NCBI GenBank assembly: GCA_000296795.1
Contig: BAFH01000004.1
Coordinates: forward strand, 434,001 to 498,000
From: Candidatus Jettenia caeni
Lineage (GTDB): Bacteria; Planctomycetota; Brocadiia; Brocadiales; Brocadiaceae
Direction of reading: 5' to 3'
DNA: 64,000 bases
Shown: positions 10,714 through 38,391 of the stretch, in pieces
How positions within the stretch are numbered: the first letter of the stretch is position 1
How the letters are laid out: each line of letters opens with the position of its first letter
Notes under the pieces: generated by a model
Database searches by the model: none
Told to the model about the DNA's origin: nothing
Seen by the model: the letters and a program-made list of their open reading frames with translations, nothing else
Made by a program: the position numbers and the translations under genes

Positions 10714-12234
10714 ATGATAAAAAATAGCCTGTGGAGACGAATTATCTTCGGTTACATAATAATTACGCTGTTTATGTTATCAACAAGTTTTTATTTAATC
10801 TTTCGCCTGAATTTTCTGAAGAAAGTTACCGACTCAGTTATGAAATCCGATATCCCTTCCATAGAGAATGGAGAAAAGCTGATAGATAGCCTTCTCGAGC
10901 AGGTCAGAAATGAGAAAAAATACCTGATTACAAATGACCAGGCTTTTTTAAACCTCTTTGATAAGAAAAAAATAGATTTCTTTGACCGGCTTCAATCTCT
11001 GGAAGAATATATAACCGGAGAAGAAAAAGTATTAATACATAAGATAAAAGAATTTTATAATAAATACATTGCAATTGTTTCTAAGGAATTTATTCTCGTA
11101 GGTAAAGACAATATCATTCCACCTGATGCCCGCTATGAAGAAGAAAAGAAAAATACCCTTGAACAGATTACTAAATCTATCAATACAATAATCCTGTCTC
11201 AACAGACTGCATTAATTAAAAAGATTGAATTATTACAAATAATCGTGCACAAATCTACCAAAGTAGCCCTTTCTTTAATCTTATCTGCAATCTTATTCGG
11301 AACGATATTCTCCTATTTCTTTACCCGCAGTATATGTTTACCCATAAAAACATTGCAGGAAGCAACAGAACGCATTTCTCAGGGAGATTTAGATTATCGG
11401 ATCGCAGTTTCATCCACAGATGAGATTGGTACTTTGGGGACTGCGTTCAATCAGATGTGTAACAGACTGAAAGAACTTGATCTCCTGAAATCGGAGTTTA
11501 TTTCCAGTATCTCACATAATCTGAAAACCCCTTTAACTGCTATCCGGGAAGCTAATGAGCTCATGCTCGATAAAATTGCCGGCCAAGTCTCTGAACCACA
11601 AATTAAACTCCTTAATATTATAAAGGAGAGCACACACCGGCTTACATTAATGATTAATGACATCCTGGATATTTCCCGGGTAGAAGCAGGATTGATGAGA
11701 TATAATTTTCAATACTCAAATATCCATGATATCATTCGTAAAAGCATTGGCGAACTACGCTTTCTTGCGGAACGTAAAAACATTTCCTTTCAGCATATAA
11801 ATGGGACTTCTATTCCTGAAATTTCATTAGATCATGATAAAATTGCTCAGGTAATAGATAACATCTTTAGCAACGCCATTAAATTTACTCCATCAGGGGG
11901 CACTGTCACAATAAAAGTAAAAGAGGTAAATGCCCGTAGTTTTTCCCCTGGTCATGGAGAAAAAAACCAGATGAATAATGTGCATTCTTTTATTCAAGTC
12001 AGCATATCAGATACCGGGATTGGAATACCGGTAGAATATCACGAAAAAGTCTTCGATAAATTTCAACAGGTGGATAATAAAGGAAAAGGTTGTACGAAGG
12101 GAACCGGGTTAGGACTCTTTATTGCAAAACAGATCGTATTTGATCACGGAGGTGAAATTTGGGTAGAAAACAATGGAGAACAAAAAGGCACTACGTTTCA
12201 TTTCACACTGCCACTAAAATACAACTACACTTAA
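10714..12234 (+). CDS. Membrane HAMP sensor histidine kinase, copy 1
   Basis: A 506-residue kinase with a membrane segment (about 9-30), a helical extracytoplasmic sensor region (31-183), a second membrane segment (184-204), HAMP (205-257), HisKA with H268 in S-H-N-L-K-T-P-L, and HATPase_c with D-T-G-I-G-I-P and G-T-G-L-G-L. It is about as long as, and clearly a paralog of, the kinase at 18774. The sensor part is conserved between the copies (for example N-L-F-D-K-K-K-I-D-F-F), so both may detect the same signal. First gene of module copy 1: kinase, lipoprotein, regulator. Confidence 0.92.
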   Translation: MIKNSLWRRIIFGYIIITLFMLSTSFYLIFRLNFLKKVTDSVMKSDIPSIENGEKLIDSLLEQVRNEKKYLITNDQAFLNLFDKKKIDFFDRLQSLEEYITGEEKVLIHKIKEFYNKYIAIVSKEFILVGKDNIIPPDARYEEEKKNTLEQITKSINTIILSQQTALIKKIELLQIIVHKSTKVALSLILSAILFGTIFSYFFTRSICLPIKTLQEATERISQGDLDYRIAVSSTDEIGTLGTAFNQMCNRLKELDLLKSEFISSISHNLKTPLTAIREANELMLDKIAGQVSEPQIKLLNIIKESTHRLTLMINDILDISRVEAGLMRYNFQYSNIHDIIRKSIGELRFLAERKNISFQHINGTSIPEISLDHDKIAQVIDNIFSNAIKFTPSGGTVTIKVKEVNARSFSPGHGEKNQMNNVHSFIQVSISDTGIGIPVEYHEKVFDKFQQVDNKGKGCTKGTGLGLFIAKQIVFDHGGEIWVENNGEQKGTTFHFTLPLKYNYT

Positions 12235-12279
12235 ACAGTTAAGATAATTTAACAGAAAACTCATTGGAGAATAAACCCT

Positions 12280-12933
12280 ATGAATATAGTAAGAACGAAA
12301 AAATATTATTTTTTCTTACTCTTGTTTTTTCCAGTTCTTATGAATACCGGATGCGCCAGCCTGTCAGCGAAAAGAGAATTAAGCAAAAAAAATGAAGAAA
12401 TTAAAATAATCAAAACAGATCTTCAGGTTAAAGAAAAAACTATTAACGATCTTCTCAATCGTCTTTCCTGGAAAGATCAGGAGATTGGAAAGCTTACCGA
12501 TGAACTCCGTACTGCCTCAACGACAATCAAAACACTCCAGGATGATATTGAAAAGCTCAAAAAGGTAGACCTCTTAGACCGTCTTTCTTCGAAAGATCAG
12601 GAAATTGGGAAACTTACCGACACACTGAAAACATCAGATCATTTAATTAAAACGCTCAGAGATGAGATTGAAAAGCTCAAAAAAACAGATCTGCTAGAGC
12701 GCCTTTCCGTGAAAGACCAAGAGATTGGAAAACTTTCTGATGAACTCTACAGCGCTGATTCTAAAATTGAACTCCTCAAAAAAGATATAGAAAAACTCAG
12801 GGAAGTAGACGTGCAAATGGAAGAGAAAAAGAAACAAGTCGATACGAGTATTAAAGACACAATACCAGTAAATCCATCAGAAGTAAAACAGGGAAACGGT
12901 ACCATAACTGAAAAAAAACAGGAGGCAGAATAG
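12280..12933 (+). CDS. Coiled-coil lipoprotein with 40-residue repeats, copy 1
   Basis: A 217-residue predicted lipoprotein: signal peptide with lipobox ending in Cys at about residue 25 (N-T-G-C), then a long charged coiled coil. It contains three tandem units of 40 residues with the core K-D-Q-E-I-G-K-L, ending in a less regular tail. The repeat is also visible in the DNA with a 120-bp period. It lies between the kinase (45 bp after it) and regulator genes, so a role in signal input to the kinase is plausible. I know no named family with this layout. Confidence 0.8.
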   Translation: MNIVRTKKYYFFLLLFFPVLMNTGCASLSAKRELSKKNEEIKIIKTDLQVKEKTINDLLNRLSWKDQEIGKLTDELRTASTTIKTLQDDIEKLKKVDLLDRLSSKDQEIGKLTDTLKTSDHLIKTLRDEIEKLKKTDLLERLSVKDQEIGKLSDELYSADSKIELLKKDIEKLREVDVQMEEKKKQVDTSIKDTIPVNPSEVKQGNGTITEKKQEAE

Positions 12934-12951
12934 TTTCTACAAAATAACATT

Positions 12952-14322
12952 ATGCTAAATGAGAAAATATTAGTTATTGATGACGACACAAATATTCTGG
13001 AAGTTATCCAGATGCGTTTAAGAGCGTTAGGTTATCATGTTACAACAGCAAAGGATAGCAAAGAAGCCAAAAAAGCATTATCTACTACTGCTTTTAACCT
13101 CGTTATCCTTGATTTGCGATTAGCTGAAGAAAACGGAATCCAACTGATGGAAGAAATCATGGGTTGCAATCCAATACTTCCCATTATTATCCTGACGGCA
13201 CATGGAAGCATTGAAAGCGCAGTTGAAGCCATGAGCAAAGGAGCGTATAGCTATATAACGAAACCTTTTAATAATGAAGAACTATCCATCCTTATCAAGA
13301 ATGCCCTTGAAAAACAAAGGCTTACCCGGGAAATCGAACAGCTCAGAAGTAAACTCAATGAACAATACAACTTTAAGAACATTATCACCCAGAATAAAAA
13401 AATGCAGGAAATCTTCGAACGGGTCATAAAAATATCCCAAACTGATTGTACTGTTTCCATTTATGGAGAGAGTGGCACAGGTAAGGAGATGATTGCAAGG
13501 GCTATCCACCACAACAGTAACCGGTCGAAGGGTCCTTTTGTCGCAACGAACTGTGGCGCCATACCAGAAGGCTTATTGGAAAATGAGCTCTTTGGACACA
13601 TACGCGGCGCATATACAGACGCCCATGAATCAAAGGATGGTCTTTTCACACGGGCTGAAGGAGGAACTGTTTTTTTAGATGAAATTAGCAATACTTCAGC
13701 AACATTACAAGTCAAGCTTTTAAGGGTATTACAGGAAAGGGAAATTAAACCTGTTGGCGGCTCAAAAAATATCAAGGTCAATGTAAGGGTTGTTGCCGCC
13801 TCAAATACAGACCTGCAAAAAGCCGTACAGGAAGGAATATTTCGTGAAGATTTATTCTATCGCATACATGTTGTGCCTATTTATCTTCCCCCTTTAAGGG
13901 AAAGGAAGGATGATATCCCTTTATTGGCGAATTATTTTATGACAGAATTTTGCAAAGCACTGAAGAAAGATGCTCTTGAATTTACACCGGCTACACTCCA
14001 AAGGATGGCCCTCTATGATTGGCCTGGCAATATACGTGAATTAAAAAACAAAGTTGAACATGCCACTATCATGAGTAATAAAAATATCATAACTCCGGAA
14101 GACATGTTTAGCAACGCAGAAGTAACACCAAAGAGTACCTTCAACTCGTTTAAAGACGCCAAGGAGAGATTTGAACATGAGTATGTGGAAAATCTCCTGA
14201 AAATAAGCAAGGGGAATATCTCAAAAGCTTCAAAAATGGCAAACCGTAATAGGGCTGAAATTTATAAATTAATTAAAAAATACAATATCAATATTGAACA
14301 TTATAAACATATTTCCCCGTAA
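12952..14322 (+). CDS. NtrC-type response regulator with GAYTDA loop, copy 1
   Basis: 456 residues: receiver (acceptor D54, Lys in T-K-P-F), AAA+ domain with Walker A G-E-S-G-T-G-K-E at 172-179 and Walker B F-L-D-E-I, and a C-terminal Fis-like helix-turn-helix. The sigma-54 contact loop, normally G-A-F-T-G-A, reads G-A-Y-T-D-A at 219-224. The Gly-to-Asp change is unusual and shared with the copy at 21028, so sigma-54 activation may be altered or lost. It follows the lipoprotein by 18 bp. Confidence 0.9.
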   Translation: MLNEKILVIDDDTNILEVIQMRLRALGYHVTTAKDSKEAKKALSTTAFNLVILDLRLAEENGIQLMEEIMGCNPILPIIILTAHGSIESAVEAMSKGAYSYITKPFNNEELSILIKNALEKQRLTREIEQLRSKLNEQYNFKNIITQNKKMQEIFERVIKISQTDCTVSIYGESGTGKEMIARAIHHNSNRSKGPFVATNCGAIPEGLLENELFGHIRGAYTDAHESKDGLFTRAEGGTVFLDEISNTSATLQVKLLRVLQEREIKPVGGSKNIKVNVRVVAASNTDLQKAVQEGIFREDLFYRIHVVPIYLPPLRERKDDIPLLANYFMTEFCKALKKDALEFTPATLQRMALYDWPGNIRELKNKVEHATIMSNKNIITPEDMFSNAEVTPKSTFNSFKDAKERFEHEYVENLLKISKGNISKASKMANRNRAEIYKLIKKYNINIEHYKHISP

Positions 14323-18773: not shown

Positions 18774-20306
18774 ATGATTAGAAACAGTCTTTGGAAACGA
18801 ATGGTCTTCGGATATATCATCATTGCATTATTTATGTCTGCAATGAGTTTTTACTTATTTCTCCGTCTGAACCATATTAATAAGGTTGTTGACTCAATTG
18901 TGAATATCGATATTCCTTCCATTAAAAATGGAGAGAAATTAGTAGATAACCTTCTTGAACAGATTCGAAACGAGAAAAAATACCTTATTACTAAAGACCG
19001 GGCTTTTTTAAACCTCTTTGATAAGAAAAAAATAGATTTTTTTGACCGGCTTCAATCTTTGAAAAAATCTACACCTAATAACAAAGAAAAGAAGGTAGTG
19101 ATAAACCAAATAAAAGAATTTTATAATAAATATATCGCCATGGCTTCTAAAGAGTTCATATTGTTAGGTTACGATAAGATTATTCCACCTGATATCCATT
19201 ATGAAGACAAAAAGAAGAGAACCCTCGACCGGCTTACACAATCTATCAACAAGCTAATCCTTACACAGCGAGCCACCTTAATTCAAAAGATTGAATTATT
19301 TCAAAAGACTACCCATAAATCTACCAGAATATTCTTTGCCATTATCTCATTTGCTATCCTGTGTGGGGTAATTTTTTCTTATTTCTTCACTTATAGCATA
19401 TGCGCACCAATAAAAATTCTAAAAAATGCAACAGAACATATTGCCCATGGAGATTTAGATTATCGTGTTGTTGTTAAATCTCATGATGAAATTGGCACCC
19501 TGGGAACGGCGTTCAATCAAATGTGCAACAAATTAAAAGAAATTGATCAAATGAAATCAGAATTTATATCTAATATCTCACATAATTTGAAAACCCCTTT
19601 AACGGCGATACGAGAGGCTAATGAACTTATGCTCGACAAAATCGCCGGCCAAATTTCAAAACCTCAAATGAAACTCCTTAATATTATCAAGGAAAATACT
19701 CTTCGGCTTATTATGATGATTAATGATCTGCTGGATATTTCGCGATTTGAAGCAGGATTGATGAGATACAATTTTCAATATGCCAATATTCAGGATGTTA
19801 TCCATAAGAGCATTGAAGAAATACGCTTTTTAGCAGAAAGTAAAAACATTTACATTCAATGGAGAAACGGAGTATCTATTCCCGATATTCTGTTAGACCG
19901 TGACAAAATTTCCCAGGTACTCGACAATATCTTTAGCAATGCTATCAAATTCACTCCATCGGGGGGAATCATCATGGTAAAAGCGCATGAGATTGAAACC
20001 GTGAACATTTCCCGTGTTTTTAAAGAACAGAATCGACTGCAAAATGTACGTTCTTTCATCCAGGTCAGCATATCTGATACCGGGGTTGGAATACCGGTTG
20101 AATATCACAAAAAGATCTTCGATAAATTTCAACAGGTTGTTAACAAGGGAAAAGGAGGTATAAAAGGAACAGGGTTAGGACTCTTCATCGCAAAGCATGT
20201 TATCCTTGACCATGGAGGTGATATTTGGGTAGAAAATAACGAGGGAGATGGTTGTACTTTCCATTTTACACTTCCTTCCAGATATAACTATATTTTACAT
20301 TCTTAA
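18774..20306 (+). CDS. Membrane HAMP sensor histidine kinase, copy 2
   Basis: 510 residues, same architecture as the kinase at 10714: membrane segment, helical sensor region, second membrane segment (about 187-207), HAMP, HisKA with H270 in S-H-N-L-K-T-P-L, HATPase_c with D-T-G-V-G-I-P and G-T-G-L-G-L. The two proteins align along their whole length with one or two short gaps. The sensor region is less conserved than the kinase core but keeps blocks such as N-E-K-K-Y-L-I-T. First gene of module copy 2. Confidence 0.92.
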   Translation: MIRNSLWKRMVFGYIIIALFMSAMSFYLFLRLNHINKVVDSIVNIDIPSIKNGEKLVDNLLEQIRNEKKYLITKDRAFLNLFDKKKIDFFDRLQSLKKSTPNNKEKKVVINQIKEFYNKYIAMASKEFILLGYDKIIPPDIHYEDKKKRTLDRLTQSINKLILTQRATLIQKIELFQKTTHKSTRIFFAIISFAILCGVIFSYFFTYSICAPIKILKNATEHIAHGDLDYRVVVKSHDEIGTLGTAFNQMCNKLKEIDQMKSEFISNISHNLKTPLTAIREANELMLDKIAGQISKPQMKLLNIIKENTLRLIMMINDLLDISRFEAGLMRYNFQYANIQDVIHKSIEEIRFLAESKNIYIQWRNGVSIPDILLDRDKISQVLDNIFSNAIKFTPSGGIIMVKAHEIETVNISRVFKEQNRLQNVRSFIQVSISDTGVGIPVEYHKKIFDKFQQVVNKGKGGIKGTGLGLFIAKHVILDHGGDIWVENNEGDGCTFHFTLPSRYNYILHS

Positions 20307-20335
20307 CCATTTTTTCAATTTAACATGGGAAACCT

Positions 20336-21007
20336 ATGAGAGATAAAATAGTGAGTTTCTTAATCATAAAAAGAATTAACTTTTTTTTATTCTTCTTTCT
20401 TCCGTTACTTCTTTCACACATGAGTTGTATCAGTGTGAACCATAAAAAGGATTTAATGAAAAAGAATGAAGAAATTAAGGATATTGCAATGGAGCTTCAA
20501 CTTAAAGAAAAAACTATCGCCGACATCTTAGATCGCCTTTCCTGGAAAGACCAGGAAATTGGAAGGCTTACCGATGAACTTCGTAACTCGAAAACAATAA
20601 TTGCAAGCCTCAGCAAAGATATTGAAAGACTAAGGGAAACAGATCTTTTAGAGCACCTTTCCGTAAAAGATCAAGAGATTGGAAAGCTTTCTGATGATCT
20701 CCATACCGCCACAACGACAATTGAAAGTCTCAAAAATAACATTGAAAAGCTCCAAAAAATTGATCTTTTAGAGCGCCTTTCCGTAAAGGACCAGGAAATT
20801 GGAAAACTTACTGATGAACTTCATACGACACAATCGACTATTACAAACCTGAAAACCGATATCGGTAAACTTTGCGAAATCGATGTACAGATGGAAGAAA
20901 AAAAAGAAGAAGTCAGTGACAAAATTGAAGAGGGAATTTCAGCAGATCCGTTACGTGCAACTTCAAAAGCTTCTCTAGAGATAATAGAAAATAAAAAATT
21001 GGAATAA
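20336..21007 (+). CDS. Coiled-coil lipoprotein with 40-residue repeats, copy 2
   Basis: 223 residues. The signal peptide ends in a lipobox-like L-L-S-H-M-S-C (Cys about residue 31). Then follow three tandem 40-residue units with the core K-D-Q-E-I-G-(K/R)-L, and a C-terminal acidic tail. Paralog of 12280-12933 with the same number of units. It lies 30 bp after the kinase gene. It probably forms a long periplasmic helical rod anchored to a membrane. Confidence 0.8.
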   Translation: MRDKIVSFLIIKRINFFLFFFLPLLLSHMSCISVNHKKDLMKKNEEIKDIAMELQLKEKTIADILDRLSWKDQEIGRLTDELRNSKTIIASLSKDIERLRETDLLEHLSVKDQEIGKLSDDLHTATTTIESLKNNIEKLQKIDLLERLSVKDQEIGKLTDELHTTQSTITNLKTDIGKLCEIDVQMEEKKEEVSDKIEEGISADPLRATSKASLEIIENKKLE

Positions 21008-21027
21008 TTTATACAAGGTAATTTATT

Positions 21028-22404
21028 ATGGCAAACGAAAATATTTTAGTAATTGATGATGACCCCAGTATCCTGGAAGTTATCCAGATGCGATTGAGAT
21101 CGTTCGGTTATCGCATCACCATTGCCATGAATGGCAATGAAGCTAAAAGAGCTTTATCAACTATTTCATTCAACCTTGCCATTGTTGATTTACGATTGGC
21201 TGATGAAAATGGCATTGAGCTTATGGAAGAAATCCTGAGTTCTTATCAAAAGATTCCCGTTATTATCCTGACAGCACACGGAAGCATTGAAACCGCTGTT
21301 GAGGCCATGAGAAAAGGAGCGTACAGTTATCTTACCAAACCTTTTAATAATGAAGAACTGTCACTCCACATCAAGAATGCGCTCGAAAAGCAAAAGCTCA
21401 CGAAGGAGATTGAGCATCTTAAGAGTCAGCTTGGTGATCAGCAGAGTTTTCGACATATTATCGGTAATAATAAACGGATGCAGGAGATCTTTGAGCAGAT
21501 ATCAAAGATTGCAAAAACGAACTGTACCGTTTCTATTTACGGTGAGAGTGGCACGGGGAAAGAACTCATTGCCAAGGCTATCCACCACAATAGTAATCGT
21601 TCAAAAAATCCATTTATAGCTACGAACTGTGGCGCCATCCCGGAAAGCTTATTAGAGAATGAACTCTTTGGGCATATACGGGGGGCATACACAGACGCCC
21701 ACGAGTCAAAAGAAGGCCTCTTTACACAGGCAGACGGGGGTACCATCTTTCTCGATGAGATTAGTACCACATCGCCAGCTCTGCAAGTCAAACTTTTGAG
21801 AGTATTACAAGAAAGGGAAATTAAACCTGTTGGCAGCACAAAAAGTATCAAGGTCAATGTCCGTGTCATCGTAGCTTCAAATATAGATCTGCAAAAGGCA
21901 GTAAACAACGGAACATTCCGTGAGGACTTATTCTACAGAATCCATGTGGTTCCCATTTATATTCCCCCTTTACGGGAAAGGAAGGATGACATTGCATTAT
22001 TAGCCACATATTTTATGACAGGGTTTTGCAAAATACTGAAAAAGGATATCAAAGGATTTACCCCGGCAGCCATCCAAAGGATGCTTCTCTATGATTGGCC
22101 AGGCAATATACGGGAATTGCAAAACAAGGTCGAACATGCTGTTATCATGACTAATAAAACCATGATAACACCGGAAGATCTTTTTACCGATGTAAACTTA
22201 AAAAATACCTTCAACTCGTATAAAGATGCCAAAGAACGATTTGAGCGTGAATATGTAGAAAGCCTTCTGAAAATAAGCAAGGGAAACGTTACAAGCGCTT
22301 CAAAAATGGCAAAACGTTATCGGGCTGATATTTATAAATTGATTAAGAAATACAACATAAACACTGAAAACTACAAGAATAATCTTACAACGAGCCTCTA
22401 CTAA
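21028..22404 (+). CDS. NtrC-type response regulator with GAYTDA loop, copy 2
   Basis: 458 residues, paralog of 12952-14322: receiver with D54, AAA+ with Walker A at 172-179, contact loop G-A-Y-T-D-A at 219-224, Walker B F-L-D-E-I, C-terminal Fis-like domain (S-A-S-K-M-A-K-R). Both copies share the same loop change, so it predates the duplication and has been kept. It follows the lipoprotein by 20 bp. Confidence 0.9.
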   Translation: MANENILVIDDDPSILEVIQMRLRSFGYRITIAMNGNEAKRALSTISFNLAIVDLRLADENGIELMEEILSSYQKIPVIILTAHGSIETAVEAMRKGAYSYLTKPFNNEELSLHIKNALEKQKLTKEIEHLKSQLGDQQSFRHIIGNNKRMQEIFEQISKIAKTNCTVSIYGESGTGKELIAKAIHHNSNRSKNPFIATNCGAIPESLLENELFGHIRGAYTDAHESKEGLFTQADGGTIFLDEISTTSPALQVKLLRVLQEREIKPVGSTKSIKVNVRVIVASNIDLQKAVNNGTFREDLFYRIHVVPIYIPPLRERKDDIALLATYFMTGFCKILKKDIKGFTPAAIQRMLLYDWPGNIRELQNKVEHAVIMTNKTMITPEDLFTDVNLKNTFNSYKDAKERFEREYVESLLKISKGNVTSASKMAKRYRADIYKLIKKYNINTENYKNNLTTSLY

Positions 22405-33443: not shown

Positions 33444-34667
33444 ATGACATATGAGAATTCAAGAAAAATTGATGTAAAACAAAGTAACAGTACCTTAGAC
33501 GTGCCTATGAAAATTGTGCAATTCAACCCTATGCACAGCAAGCTTGCCATCCTATACTTGACTGCAGTTTTATTTCCCTTATTTTTGATTACTACCCGTA
33601 TACCTATCTTTGCATCGACAATCTTACAGGTCTCAGGTGGAAGTTTTCACAGCATCGCCCTGAAATCCGACGGCACTGTTTTGACCTGGGGACAAAATAT
33701 GCATGGGCAATTGGGAGATGGAACAAACACCGACAGGAAAATACCCGTACAAGTAAAAGACCTGAATAATGTAACCGCTATTGCCGGAGGGGCATGGCAT
33801 AGCGTTGCTTTAACATCAGATGGCACAGTATGGACTTGGGGGAGCAACTGGGCTGGGCAACTGGGAGATGGTACGACAAAAAGCAGGAATAAGCCTGTTC
33901 AGGTAAATAATCTTAAGAATATTACTGCAATTGCCAGCAAAGGACTGCATAATCTTGCTCTGAAATCAGATGGTACAGTCTGGACATGGGGGCGGAATAT
34001 CTACGGTCAATTAGGCGATGGAACCACAACAGATAGAAACACACCTGTACAGACAAGAAGCCTGAACACTATAATCTCCATTGCCGGAGGGGGATATCAC
34101 AGCCTTGCACAAAAGGCGGATGGCACAATCTGGACATGGGGATTGAATCAATATGGACAACTGGGAGACGGAACTATTACCAACAGGACCATTCCCGTTT
34201 TGGTGAATGGAATTAAAGACGTCAGCATGATCCGTTGCGGGGGAGATCATAGCATTGTCCTGAAGAATAACGGTACTATTTGGATATGGGGATTTAATCA
34301 ACACGGTCAGCTGGGGGATAGGTCAACCGATAACAGAAGTACCCCGGTTCCTATGGGCGATCTTAAAAACATCATGACAATTGACGGTGGAGGAGACCAC
34401 AGTCTTATCCTTAAATCAGATGGTACGGTCTGGACGTGGGGGAATAACGAGAATGGCCAATTGGGAGATGGTACTACCATGAGCAGAGCTACCCCCATCC
34501 AGGCAAGCACATTGAGCAATGTTACTGCTATTGCCAGTGGGGAACAGCACAGTATTGCCCTGAAGTCAGATGGTACCATATGGGCATGGGGATCAAATAG
34601 AAATGGTCAATTGGGGGACGGATCTATCTCAAATAGAAGTACTCCGGTTCTTGTAAAAATTAAGTAA
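33444..34667 (+). CDS. Exported RCC1-repeat beta-propeller protein
   Basis: 407 residues: a signal-like hydrophobic N-terminus (ending near I-F-A-S, about residue 59) followed by seven tandem repeats of about 50 residues. Each has the pattern H-S-(I/L)-A-L-K-S-D-G-T-(V/I)-W-T-W-G-x-N-x-x-G-Q-L-G-D-G-T. Seven units fit one complete propeller. RCC1-like proteins in bacteria are mostly uncharacterised, secreted or surface proteins; binding to a partner is likely. The start is uncertain: the ATG at 33444 or the ATG at M22 gives a better signal peptide, and neither has a clear ribosome site. Confidence 0.82.
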   Translation: MTYENSRKIDVKQSNSTLDVPMKIVQFNPMHSKLAILYLTAVLFPLFLITTRIPIFASTILQVSGGSFHSIALKSDGTVLTWGQNMHGQLGDGTNTDRKIPVQVKDLNNVTAIAGGAWHSVALTSDGTVWTWGSNWAGQLGDGTTKSRNKPVQVNNLKNITAIASKGLHNLALKSDGTVWTWGRNIYGQLGDGTTTDRNTPVQTRSLNTIISIAGGGYHSLAQKADGTIWTWGLNQYGQLGDGTITNRTIPVLVNGIKDVSMIRCGGDHSIVLKNNGTIWIWGFNQHGQLGDRSTDNRSTPVPMGDLKNIMTIDGGGDHSLILKSDGTVWTWGNNENGQLGDGTTMSRATPIQASTLSNVTAIASGEQHSIALKSDGTIWAWGSNRNGQLGDGSISNRSTPVLVKIK

Positions 34668-34753: not shown

Positions 34754-35355
34754 TTATGCACTTTGAAATATCACCTCAGCAAATCTTCTTAGCATGAGTA
34801 TGGCGAAAGCAAGGAAATGAAGACCCGTCAACACTTCAGGCAGTCGCTCATAATCCCTTACGAGTCTTCTGAACCTGCTCTTCCATGCAAAGGGTCTCTC
34901 AATGACCCATCTTTTGGGGAGAAGTACAAATCCTTTTTTTGTATGAGGGAGCTTCATCACTTGAAGCTCTATTCCACGCCCTTTTGCCTGATCACCTGTG
35001 TAGTCTTGATTCACAAAGGTTATCAAGGCGGATTCTCCCGTTACTTCCTGAATCTCTTGGCACAACCTCTTCACCTTGGCTCGTTCCTGCTCATTGGCAG
35101 GAGTTACATACAGAGCCAGAAGATGCCCGAGGATATCAACAGCCATAGGGATCTTGCTTCCTTTCCGGCTCTTTCCTCACTCTCAGGTGTAGACTGAATA
35201 GTCTGGCTATCGATAATCGCTCTGGAAGGCTCCTTTTTCCTTCCTTCAGCCAGTCTCAGAATCTCTCGAAGATCATGAACAACGGCCTCAAAGACTCCGG
35301 CTCTTATCCATCTCGTAGCTTGCTGGTAGATGGTATATATACCAGGAATGTGCAT
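34754..35355 (-). pseudogene. IS5-family transposase remnant
   Basis: Two overlapping frames (35104-35355 and 34754-35146) together encode the middle and end of an IS5-family DDE transposase: I-I-D-S-Q-T-I in the first, and D-I-L-G-H-L-L-A-L-Y-V-T-P-A and R-W-V-I-E-R-(P/T)-F-A-W in the second. In the second frame the sequence just before 35146 reads K-G-S-K-I-P, continuous with the family, so the break is a frameshift near 35150-35180. The N-terminal third (about 50 residues) is missing at the upstream side. Inactive; terminal repeats were not identified with confidence. Confidence 0.85.
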
Positions 35356-35776
35356 GAATGTACATGAAATTCATAAAATATTAACCACAGATGGACTCTG
35401 ATATACACAAATAAGATAGCAGATTAAATATCCCCTTTATTAATTTTTGTACAATTGTGTACAAGTATGTACGTAATCACCTGTTAAAACGCAAAATAGT
35501 TATCCTCACAACAATGAACCTTTCATACATTAAAAAACTGATAAAATTATCACATATACATAAGTATGTAAGCACAACGCCATTTGCAGGTTATATATAT
35601 GCATATGAGTATTTGCCCTACACTAAATACAGATTGAATAATTCCAATAAAAAGCAATCTTGATTCATTGGCATTTTTCTTGCTAAATACTTTTATTTAA
35701 AACGTTTATAAAGATCATAGTAAGTACTGTTGATATCAAATCGGTTCTTTTGAAATAAAGGCTTTTGATAAAAGCC
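35356..35776. other. Gap with a TTGTACA palindrome
   Basis: AT-rich, non-coding. An inverted repeat TTGTACA-ATTG-TGTACAA lies at 35447-35464, with further GTAC words nearby. A 68-codon frame at 35457 has no ribosome site or family feature and is not called. The promoter for the riboswitch transcript is expected near the right end. Confidence 0.35.
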
Positions 35777-35862
35777 CGAAAATGGCAAAACATTCGAAAG
35801 GATGTGGCGCAAAGCTACTGGCCTAAGTCCTCTTACAGGATATGGTTGCAGGGTTGCCGGAA
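35777..35862 (+). promoter_or_regulatory. Cyclic-di-GMP-I (GEMM) riboswitch
   Basis: The aptamer signature is clear: TGGCAAA at 35783-35789, then a hairpin with a GAAA tetraloop (ACATTC-GAAA-GGATGT), GGCGCAAAGC, TACTGGCCTAA, a second arm (GTCCT/AGGAT) and the closing GGTTGCAGGGTTGCC. Known binders such as Vc2 show the same order (GGGCAAACC ... GAAA ... GACGCAAAGCC ... GGCCUAA ... GGUUACC). The base before C in the first box is G, as in c-di-GMP rather than cGAMP types. It precedes the gene at 36018 by about 155 bp. Confidence 0.88.
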
Positions 35863-35876
35863 AAGATCATCTCATT

Positions 35877-35906
35877 ATATGATTGTTTTAGTACAATCAT
35901 ATTTTT
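35877..35906 (+). terminator. Putative terminator stem downstream of riboswitch
   Basis: ATATGATTGT (35877-35886) and ACAATCATAT (35893-35902) form a perfect 10-bp stem with a 6-base loop, followed by TTTT. It starts 15 bases after the aptamer, where an expression platform would be. It is AT-rich, so termination may be weak. No clear anti-terminator was found. Confidence 0.5.
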
Positions 35907-36017
35907 ACATAAACGGGATACTGCGATCATAATATTTTCATATTTATAACCTACCAGTAGTTACATCTCCATTTGCGTCATTCCTGTTGCTACCGTATAT
36001 TTCCTTAAGAAAATAAA

Positions 36018-37727
36018 ATGACTTTAGAAACTGTAAAAAATCGCCTTGTTAAACAACCGCCCCATCTTCGCATTCTTGCGGCTGAGGACGAGGAATCAGT
36101 TCAGCAGGTTTTAAAGATTACGCTGGAGTATGAGGGACATCATGTTATCATAGTGGAAAAAGGCGAGGAAGTCTTTTATACCTTAGAATCAGAAACTATA
36201 GATCTTCTCATTTTGGATAGTGATCTTCCTAATATCTCCAGTATTGATATCTGTTACTATTTAATGAATGATCTTTTGTGGCAATCACTACCCATTATCA
36301 TGCTTACAGAGGATCAGACTATTGAAGATAAGTTGAAAGGTCTGCATGAGGGTTTGGACTATTACATTACAAAACCATTTACAACCGATGAGTTACTCAC
36401 ATGTCTGCATAAGGTTTATGAGTATTATCAATGTACCAGAGAAGTTAGTCCTCTGGCCCGACTACCCGGCAATATCGCAGTGGAAAGGGAAATTAGCCGC
36501 AGAATAGTACAACAGCATAAGTTTTCAGTATTGTATTGTGATATTAATCATTTTAAATCATACGATGATACTTATGGACTTATCCATGGAGACGCCGTCA
36601 TACGCTCTACAGCAAGAATTCTTTTGTCATGTACAGACCATCATAAAGACCTCGCAGGATATATAAGTGAGGATAACTTCGTCATTGTAACTTCGCCGGA
36701 TAGAGCCGCTTCTATTTGTGAATCTGTTATTGAAAAGTTCGATACCCTGATTCCAAAGCTTTATGATGAGTCTCATCGAATAGCAGGATTTGTTGTAACC
36801 CAGGAACGGGAAGGAGTTCTGCACAAATTTCCCTTAATTTCGATTGCTATCGGCGGTGTAAGCAATGAATGGAAAGAGTTAACTTCGGTGAGAGAAGTTA
36901 GTACTATTGGCATAGAGATGAAGCGTTTTGCCAAACAAAAGGGTAAGGGAAAGTCTGCCTATGCTTTTGATCGCCGCAGGAATCTGATCAGGGAGGATAT
37001 TACTTCTTATCTCAATAGAATTGCCTTTGAGGACGTCGGGGGAATATCGTATATTTTAAAAAAAAGCCATCAAAGACGGATTGCAAAAGTCCTCCAAATG
37101 ATTAAAAGTGAACTATCGGTACTTCAGAACAAAGGCAATATGGAATTATTGAGTATTGGTTGTGGAAATGGGATAATTGAAAGGCAGATCATGGACCTGG
37201 GAATCAAGGTTTGGGGAGTAGATTCTTCCAGCAAGGCTCTTATCGAGGCTCAAAAGAAGGGTATAGAGGTTTCTGTTGCTGATGTTACCGAAGGCTTACC
37301 GTATGATACTAATCGATTTGATATGATATTTGCAGGAGAAATCATCGAACATATTATTGATACTCAAAAATTTCTGCTTGAAGTTAAAAGGGTTTTAAAA
37401 CCAGGAGGAACTCTTATTCTTACAACCCCAAATATGGGCAGATTGATTGATCGCATTCGATTTCTCTTTGGAAAAGCGCCAAAACACGCTTCTCCTCTGA
37501 ATATTTTACATGTGCGGCCTTTTACTTTTGATTCTCTCAAAACAGCTCTGGAAGATGCCGGATTTACCGTAACCAAGATAGCATCGAACGTAATGGCTTA
37601 CGATATCACGTTGATATTCAATTTTAAGTCCACCTGGTTATCTAATCTTTTTCCAACACTTGGGAAAAATCTTATAGTTAAGGCTTTTTCATCCCATGAC
37701 CCTTTCCGGAAACTCAAAACAGTATGA
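36018..37727 (+). CDS. Receiver / degenerate GGDEF / methyltransferase fusion
   Basis: 569 residues. Receiver domain (about 15-135) with D-S-D-L-P at the phospho-acceptor site and T-K-P-F. GGDEF-like domain (about 145-320) that keeps the fold (Y-C-D-I-N-H-F-K-S-Y near 173, I-H-G-D near 190) but has S-E-D-N-F where G-G-D-E-F belongs. Class I SAM methyltransferase (about 370-530) with I-G-C-G-N-G and a late V-L-K-P-G-G-T-L. Diguanylate cyclase activity is unlikely; binding of a nucleotide is possible. It is behind a c-di-GMP riboswitch. The methyl acceptor is unknown. Confidence 0.85.
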   Translation: MTLETVKNRLVKQPPHLRILAAEDEESVQQVLKITLEYEGHHVIIVEKGEEVFYTLESETIDLLILDSDLPNISSIDICYYLMNDLLWQSLPIIMLTEDQTIEDKLKGLHEGLDYYITKPFTTDELLTCLHKVYEYYQCTREVSPLARLPGNIAVEREISRRIVQQHKFSVLYCDINHFKSYDDTYGLIHGDAVIRSTARILLSCTDHHKDLAGYISEDNFVIVTSPDRAASICESVIEKFDTLIPKLYDESHRIAGFVVTQEREGVLHKFPLISIAIGGVSNEWKELTSVREVSTIGIEMKRFAKQKGKGKSAYAFDRRRNLIREDITSYLNRIAFEDVGGISYILKKSHQRRIAKVLQMIKSELSVLQNKGNMELLSIGCGNGIIERQIMDLGIKVWGVDSSSKALIEAQKKGIEVSVADVTEGLPYDTNRFDMIFAGEIIEHIIDTQKFLLEVKRVLKPGGTLILTTPNMGRLIDRIRFLFGKAPKHASPLNILHVRPFTFDSLKTALEDAGFTVTKIASNVMAYDITLIFNFKSTWLSNLFPTLGKNLIVKAFSSHDPFRKLKTV

Positions 37728-37767
37728 TGCTTTACATCTCTGTAATTTTTATTATTAAGGAGTTCAT

Positions 37768-38391
37768 ATGAAATTTAAAAATAATCCTCCAATCGACTAT
37801 ATAAAGGAAAAAAAGGTCAATGAGGTTATAAAGATATACTTTGAGTTTAATCACTTAAAACAACTCTATAGGCAAGGTTGGCTATTGAAAAACATTCCGG
37901 AGGAGAAATGTGAGAGTGTGGCTGATCATATCTATGGAGTAACCATGCTTTCTTTTATTGTCGCTCATGAGTTTTTTCCTGAATTGGATATAACCAAAAT
38001 TATCAAAATTGCTCTCATACATGATTTGGGTGAAGCGCATGTAGGAGATTTGACACCTCACGATCAAATACATCCTCATAAGAAGGAAAAAGATGAATAC
38101 GAGGCGATTGCTCAAATTCTTTCAAAACTTTCTACAGGAAAAATGTATTTGAATTTATGGAATGAATTCCGGAACCAGAGTTCTCTAGAGAGTAAATTTG
38201 TCAAACAAATGGACCGTCTGGAGATGGCTTTGCAGGCGAGCGTTTATGAGAATTTAGGTTACGGGAATATGCAGAATTTTTTTGATCATGTACAAAAAAA
38301 GCTATCGGATGAGGAACTCAAGAATATATTTAAAGACATAGGCTATATCAGAAGGCGGTCTTCCGGTATTGATTTTAAAATGCCGGAATGA
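37768..38391 (+). CDS. HD-domain hydrolase (YfbR/HDDC2-like)
   Basis: 207 residues with the HD metal site: A-D-H near residue 52, L-I-H-D-L-G-E near 89, and a later Asp (Q-M-D-R-L-E) near 150. Proteins of this group remove phosphate from deoxynucleoside monophosphates. AAGGAG precedes the ATG and the gene lies 40 bp after the receiver/GGDEF/methyltransferase gene, so it is probably under the same riboswitch. Substrate inferred only from family. Confidence 0.82.
   Translation: MKFKNNPPIDYIKEKKVNEVIKIYFEFNHLKQLYRQGWLLKNIPEEKCESVADHIYGVTMLSFIVAHEFFPELDITKIIKIALIHDLGEAHVGDLTPHDQIHPHKKEKDEYEAIAQILSKLSTGKMYLNLWNEFRNQSSLESKFVKQMDRLEMALQASVYENLGYGNMQNFFDHVQKKLSDEELKNIFKDIGYIRRRSSGIDFKMPE

What the first reader, a model, noticed from the sequence alone, without database searches (positions are those of the whole stretch)
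35777..38391. c-di-GMP riboswitch controlling a degenerate GGDEF-methyltransferase
A clear GEMM-I aptamer and terminator-like stem precede a gene whose GGDEF motif is SEDNF, fused to a receiver and a SAM methyltransferase, followed by an HD hydrolase. The cell seems to control by c-di-GMP a protein that looks like, but is not, a c-di-GMP synthase. A second-messenger-linked methyltransferase is unusual.
Basis: partly seen in the sequence, partly recalled or inferred. Interest (0 to 1): 0.75.

Follow-up and report, generated by a model that had tools for sequence, protein, structure and literature searches.

The report
c-di-GMP riboswitch on dead-GGDEF methyltransferase
In an anammox bacterium (genus Jettenia), an RNA sensor for the signal molecule c-di-GMP sits in front of a three-domain regulatory protein whose signal-making domain has lost its catalytic motif and which ends in a methyltransferase; this is a young, lineage-specific arrangement built from well-known parts, and its function is untested.

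Summary
Mostly confirmed. A c-di-GMP-I riboswitch lies at 35774-35861 (81.9 bits, cut-off 35) and carries the G that selects c-di-GMP over cGAMP. The gene 36018-37727 encodes receiver - GGDEF-like - class I methyltransferase, with SEDNF in place of GGDEF. The genome is a Ca. Jettenia (anammox). The full fusion was found only in three Jettenia genomes and Ca. Loosdrechtia (62%). Loosdrechtia keeps GGDDF and has no riboswitch; all three Jettenia have both the riboswitch and the ruined motif. The closest GGDEF relatives are of a GGDDF type, so Jettenia decayed an already non-canonical domain. The guanine-binding Asn and inhibitory-site Arg are absent, but dN/dS (0.11-0.21) shows continued constraint.

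Corrections: the AU-rich terminator-like stem is predicted to form whether or not the aptamer does, so it is probably not the switch. A downstream segment that can pair with the aptamer core is a better but unproven platform; ON or OFF is undetermined. The HD gene is HDDC2-type, not a c-di-GMP phosphodiesterase, and Jettenia-only within its family. GGDEF genes under c-di-GMP riboswitches are already a known theme. Verdict: new variant of a known kind, moderate interest.

The parts
35774..35861 (+). c-di-GMP-I (GEMM-I) riboswitch aptamer; the first G of GGCAAA (35784) corresponds to the c-di-GMP-selecting G20
   Evidence: cmscan 81.9 bits vs gathering 35; conserved in G001 and G002; A20 = cGAMP, A20G = c-di-GMP in PMC6456294
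35877..35902 (+). AU-rich hairpin followed by U-run (terminator-like; predicted constitutive)
   Evidence: fold -9.8 kcal/mol; forms at p~0.97 with or without the aptamer constraint
35954..35984 (+). candidate anti-aptamer segment (CCAGUAGU ... AUUUGCGUCAUUCC) able to pair with aptamer core 35800-35821
   Evidence: whole aptamer-leader duplex -48.6 kcal/mol; 1 of 1000 dinucleotide shuffles, 5 of 534 GC-matched genomic pieces do as well; pairing segments invariant in 3 congeners
36018..37727 (+). gene for REC - degenerate GGDEF (SEDNF) - class I SAM methyltransferase, 569 aa
   Evidence: Pfam; orthologs; models with Foldseek matches to WspR/PleD/DgcR and to class I methyltransferases
37768..38391 (+). 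HD_3 / HDDC2-like phosphohydrolase; neighbour, probably not part of the unit
   Evidence: Pfam HD_3 1.9e-37; PDB HDDC2 3e-29; close homologue only in Jettenia within the family

Best explanation
The mRNA leader carries a c-di-GMP-I riboswitch that sets how much of an orphan response regulator is made. That protein has an intact receiver domain (phosphorylation input), a catalytically dead GGDEF domain kept as a dimerisation and possibly nucleotide-binding module, and a class I SAM methyltransferase as the output. So c-di-GMP level (through RNA) and a histidine kinase (through the receiver) would jointly decide methylation of an unknown substrate. Shown by computation: aptamer, domains, loss of the catalytic and I-site residues, selection on the domains, lineage distribution. 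Inferred: that c-di-GMP binds, that the receiver is phosphorylated, that the methyltransferase is active and gated by the other domains. Direction of the switch: unknown; folding weakly favours repression (start-site accessibility is lower with the aptamer formed in all three species).
For: Aptamer 81.9 bits and conserved in 3/3 Jettenia. Receiver residues E23/D24, D67, T97, K119 present in the window protein. SEDNF/GEDNF, guanine-contact N->D, no RxxD; nine better-scoring GGDEF domains elsewhere in the genome, of which seven read as GGDEF/GGEEF, could supply c-di-GMP. dN/dS between congeners 0.12-0.23 overall, 0.11-0.21 in the GGDEF part, 0.03-0.15 in the methyltransferase. SAM motif SIGCGNG, acidic D402 and EIIEHI kept in Jettenia. 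Start-site accessibility change.
Against: No ligand-binding data. The riboswitch is missing from the Loosdrechtia ortholog, so RNA control is not essential to the protein. The Shine-Dalgarno is weak. The accessibility change is small and has no shuffled control. Loosdrechtia has lost D24 and T97 in the receiver and D402 in the methyltransferase, so those functions are not uniformly conserved.
Confidence: 0.5

Rival explanations
1. The GGDEF-like domain still binds GTP, like the GEDEF domain of Caulobacter CC3396, and gates the methyltransferase allosterically, so the protein reads GTP and the riboswitch reads c-di-GMP.
For: Metal Asp D175, D192, third-position D219, F221 and K306 are kept; one congener reads GEDNF; the domain is under purifying selection; CC3396 is a GEDEF-EAL protein with only phosphodiesterase activity (PMC8835794; its GTP activation is from my own knowledge).
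Against: The guanine-contact Asn is Asp and the fourth motif residue is Asn; no binding data.
Confidence: 0.3
2. The GGDEF-like domain is a c-di-GMP receptor like PopA, so the same ligand acts on RNA and protein.
For: Degenerate GGDEF proteins acting as c-di-GMP effectors are known (PopA, PMC5052742).
Against: PopA works through an intact I-site; here RxxD reads HHKD (YHKD in one congener), and the aligned GGDDF relatives mostly lack it too.
Confidence: 0.1
3. The riboswitch and gene are a relaxed, decaying leftover with little function: an aptamer landed upstream of a drifting gene.
For: Motif decay; weak expression platform; riboswitch and HD gene absent in Loosdrechtia; transposase remnant just upstream; aptamers of this kind are duplicated elsewhere in the genome.
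Against: dN/dS is well below 1 overall and in the receiver, GGDEF and methyltransferase parts in all three comparisons; only the short linker reaches 1 in one. The aptamer is nearly identical in three species.
Confidence: 0.15
4. The AU-rich hairpin is a c-di-GMP-controlled terminator.
For: Hairpin plus U-run, better than 195 of 200 shuffles.
Against: No competition with the aptamer: formation probability ~0.97 either way; AU-rich stem with few G-C pairs; many of the genome's other riboswitches use a stronger terminator of a conserved type that this leader lacks.
Confidence: 0.1

Closest known systems
c-di-GMP-I (GEMM-I) riboswitch, RF01051
   Same: Full-length match, conserved core, G at the ligand-selecting position
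   Different: No overlapping terminator as expression platform; a downstream segment is complementary to the aptamer core
REC-GGDEF diguanylate cyclases (WspR, PleD, DgcR)
   Same: Receiver plus GGDEF order and fold
   Different: SEDNF motif, no I-site, N->D at the guanine contact, C-terminal methyltransferase
GGDDF-type GGDEF domains (PA3258 reported without effect on c-di-GMP; GSU1937 reported active; PMC8835794)
   Same: The Loosdrechtia ortholog and the closest relatives outside Jettenia carry GGDDF, mostly within GH(I/V)GGDDF
   Different: Jettenia has gone further, to SEDNF/GEDNF. Whether PA3258 and GSU1937 belong to the same subfamily was not tested
Degenerate GGDEF proteins (PopA; CC3396 GEDEF)
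   Same: Catalytic motif lost, domain retained in a signalling protein
   Different: PopA has an intact I-site, and CC3396 is fused to an EAL domain; here the output is a methyltransferase

Membership tests
c-di-GMP-I riboswitch (RF01051) | covariance-model score above gathering cut-off | tested here: met
   81.9 vs 35 bits
c-di-GMP-I riboswitch (RF01051) | G rather than A at the selectivity nucleotide (position 20) | tested here: met
   first G of GGCAAA at 35784 in the cmscan alignment; A20/A20G selectivity from PMC6456294; the mapping of position 20 rests on my own knowledge of Vc2 numbering
c-di-GMP-I riboswitch (RF01051) | binds c-di-GMP | not testable with these tools
   needs in-line probing or ITC
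c-di-GMP-I riboswitch (RF01051) | ligand-dependent expression platform | tested here: inconclusive
   hairpin does not compete with the aptamer; anti-aptamer pairing plausible
active diguanylate cyclase | [G/A/S]G[D/E]E[F/Y] motif | tested here: not met
   SEDNF, GEDNF in one congener
active diguanylate cyclase | guanine-binding Asn | tested here: not met
   N->D at residue 183 in 3/3 Jettenia, Asn in all other aligned sequences
I-site c-di-GMP receptor (PopA type) | RxxD | tested here: not met
   HHKD / YHKD
receiver domain | acidic pair, phospho-acceptor Asp, Thr, Lys | tested here: met
   E23/D24, D67, T97, K119; PF00072 8e-20
class I SAM methyltransferase | GxGxG motif, SAM-ribose acid, Rossmann fold | tested here: met
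   SIGCGNG, D402, model pTM 0.71 with Foldseek E 5.8e-17 to 3cc8
HD-GYP c-di-GMP phosphodiesterase (downstream gene) | best matches to HD-GYP proteins | tested here: not met
   best match HD_3 / HDDC2

The most novel reading that the evidence does not exclude
c-di-GMP signalling changed layers: in the Jettenia lineage a cyclic-dinucleotide enzyme or sensor domain fused to a methyltransferase lost its catalytic motif while its mRNA gained a c-di-GMP riboswitch, so a signal-linked methyltransferase came under RNA control. The switch would work by a distal anti-aptamer segment rather than a terminator.
Probability: 0.2. Interest if true: 0.6.

Novelty: new variant of a known kind. Interest (0 to 1): 0.4.

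Why it matters
If true, it links c-di-GMP to methylation in anammox bacteria, where the held literature gave no paper treating c-di-GMP riboswitches, and gives a traceable case of a GGDEF domain losing its motif in the same lineage in which RNA-level sensing appears. The correlation rests on one lineage, so it is suggestive only.

Tried and rejected
(1) An inverted second aptamer as the source of the anti-aptamer segment: no such match on either strand at E<=10. (2) cGAMP specificity: rejected from the selectivity nucleotide. (3) A degraded riboswitch upstream of the Loosdrechtia ortholog: none at E<=10. (4) The histidine kinase with a sibling riboswitch as dedicated partner: it belongs to a family with 19 close matches in this genome, so no case. 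(5) Substrate of the methyltransferase from fold search: only generic class I enzymes; no close stand-alone relative among the related genomes. (6) Terminator as the switch: no competition with the aptamer. (7) A first accessibility script had an off-by-one constraint and wrong terminator coordinates; corrected. (8) A genomic null without GC matching made the anti-aptamer signal weak (107 of 809 pieces); the GC-matched null is 5 of 534.

Full report
Observation. The window holds one Rfam match above threshold, a full-length c-di-GMP-I aptamer at 35774-35861 + (81.9 bits). It is followed 156 nt later by a 569-aa gene (36018-37727) with receiver, GGDEF and class I methyltransferase domains, then by an HD_3 gene (37768-38391).

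Where it is. The genome (4.09 Mb, 4 contigs) belongs to Ca. Jettenia, an anammox genus: the Ca. Jettenia ecosi protein is 96% identical, and the window carries multiheme cytochrome genes. The genome has 18 c-di-GMP-I riboswitches above cut-off (21 at E<=0.001) in two kinds. Five are strong and canonical (82-87 bits): this one, three near two genes for exported beta-helix proteins (two of them in tandem), and one before a PAS histidine kinase. The rest mostly have a long insert, and for many a strong terminator lies just downstream, in some overlapping the aptamer's 3' strand, which by analogy suggests c-di-GMP-ON switches.

Distribution. Full-length homologs occur in the three Jettenia genomes and in Ca. 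Loosdrechtia (62-63%). None was found in the 29 other same-family genomes, in the rest of a 392-genome sample of the phylum, or elsewhere in the GTDB contig scan, which used only two peptide patterns and is therefore not exhaustive. The riboswitch is present in all three Jettenia and absent in Loosdrechtia. A close homologue of the HD gene is likewise limited to Jettenia in the family; its best solved relative is HDDC2, and in one congener the gap before it is about 187 nt instead of 40.

The GGDEF domain. Among relatives outside Jettenia, the ortholog, the receiver-GGDEF proteins that align over the whole region, and the EAL-containing or gammaproteobacterial proteins all carry GGDDF; a separate set of shorter matches are ordinary GGDEF/GGEEF proteins. 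Loosdrechtia reads MGGDDF. In Jettenia the motif is SEDNF or GEDNF, and the guanine-contact Asn is Asp. The I-site RxxD is HHKD or YHKD. Published GGDDF proteins differ: PA3258 showed no effect on c-di-GMP, whereas GSU1937 is active (PMC8835794), so the ancestor's activity is open, but the Jettenia form fails the motif tests for a cyclase. Low dN/dS (0.11-0.21 in this segment) argues that the domain is still used. The same genome has nine better-scoring GGDEF domains; seven were read here and are GGDEF or GGEEF.

The other domains. Receiver residues are complete in the window protein but not in Loosdrechtia (D24N, T97V). SAM motifs are complete in Jettenia; Loosdrechtia has G at D402. AlphaFold2 gave a confident receiver-GGDEF part, matching WspR, PleD and DgcR, and a moderate methyltransferase model (mean pLDDT 72) matching generic class I enzymes. 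No substrate can be named.

Expression platform. The AU-rich hairpin 35877-35902 is better than chance but is predicted to form whether or not the aptamer is folded, so it is unlikely to be ligand-controlled. Segment 35954-35984 can pair with aptamer core 35800-35821, and once it is transcribed the alternative fold is favoured by roughly 14-20 kcal/mol over the aptamer fold. The aptamer-leader duplex beats 999 of 1000 shuffles and all but 5 of 534 GC-matched genomic pieces. The three congeners are too similar to test covariation. With the aptamer enforced, ribosome-site accessibility falls modestly in all three species (0.68 to 0.44, 0.63 to 0.56, 0.57 to 0.45). This leans towards repression by c-di-GMP but is weak. 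Thermodynamic folding ignores co-transcriptional kinetics and the energy of ligand binding.

Verdict. Known parts in a new, lineage-specific combination. Riboswitches of this class were assigned their ligand partly because many sit near c-di-GMP genes (PMC7266159), so that aspect is ordinary. The methyltransferase fusion, and the presence of riboswitch and motif loss in the same lineage, are the interesting parts; the latter rests on a single lineage.

Noticed in passing
G000 whole genome; L001-L021: 18 c-di-GMP-I riboswitches above cut-off in one anammox genome, several near pilin-like, PilM-like, prepilin peptidase-like, glycosyltransferase and exported-protein genes; many have a strong terminator just downstream, suggesting ON switches.
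   Followed up: partly
L001-L003 (G000:C3:537949-543390): Three near-identical canonical aptamers beside two genes for exported right-handed beta-helix proteins, two of the aptamers in tandem; the leader ends in AAGGAGGTGCTG with an upstream complementary CAGCAC, suggesting a translational switch.
   Followed up: partly
L004 (G000:C3:1469991-1470078): The same riboswitch kind precedes a PAS histidine kinase that belongs to an expanded family (19 close matches in this genome); the arrangement recurs in two congeners.
   Followed up: partly
34754-35355 -: Transposase (DDE) apparently split over two overlapping reading frames, a likely broken insertion element just upstream of the riboswitch.
   Followed up: no
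10714-14322 and 18774-22404 +: Two paralogous three-gene modules: sensor kinase, coiled-coil protein, sigma-54 type regulator.
   Followed up: no
33444-34667 +: Protein made of RCC1 repeats with a probable export signal.
   Followed up: no
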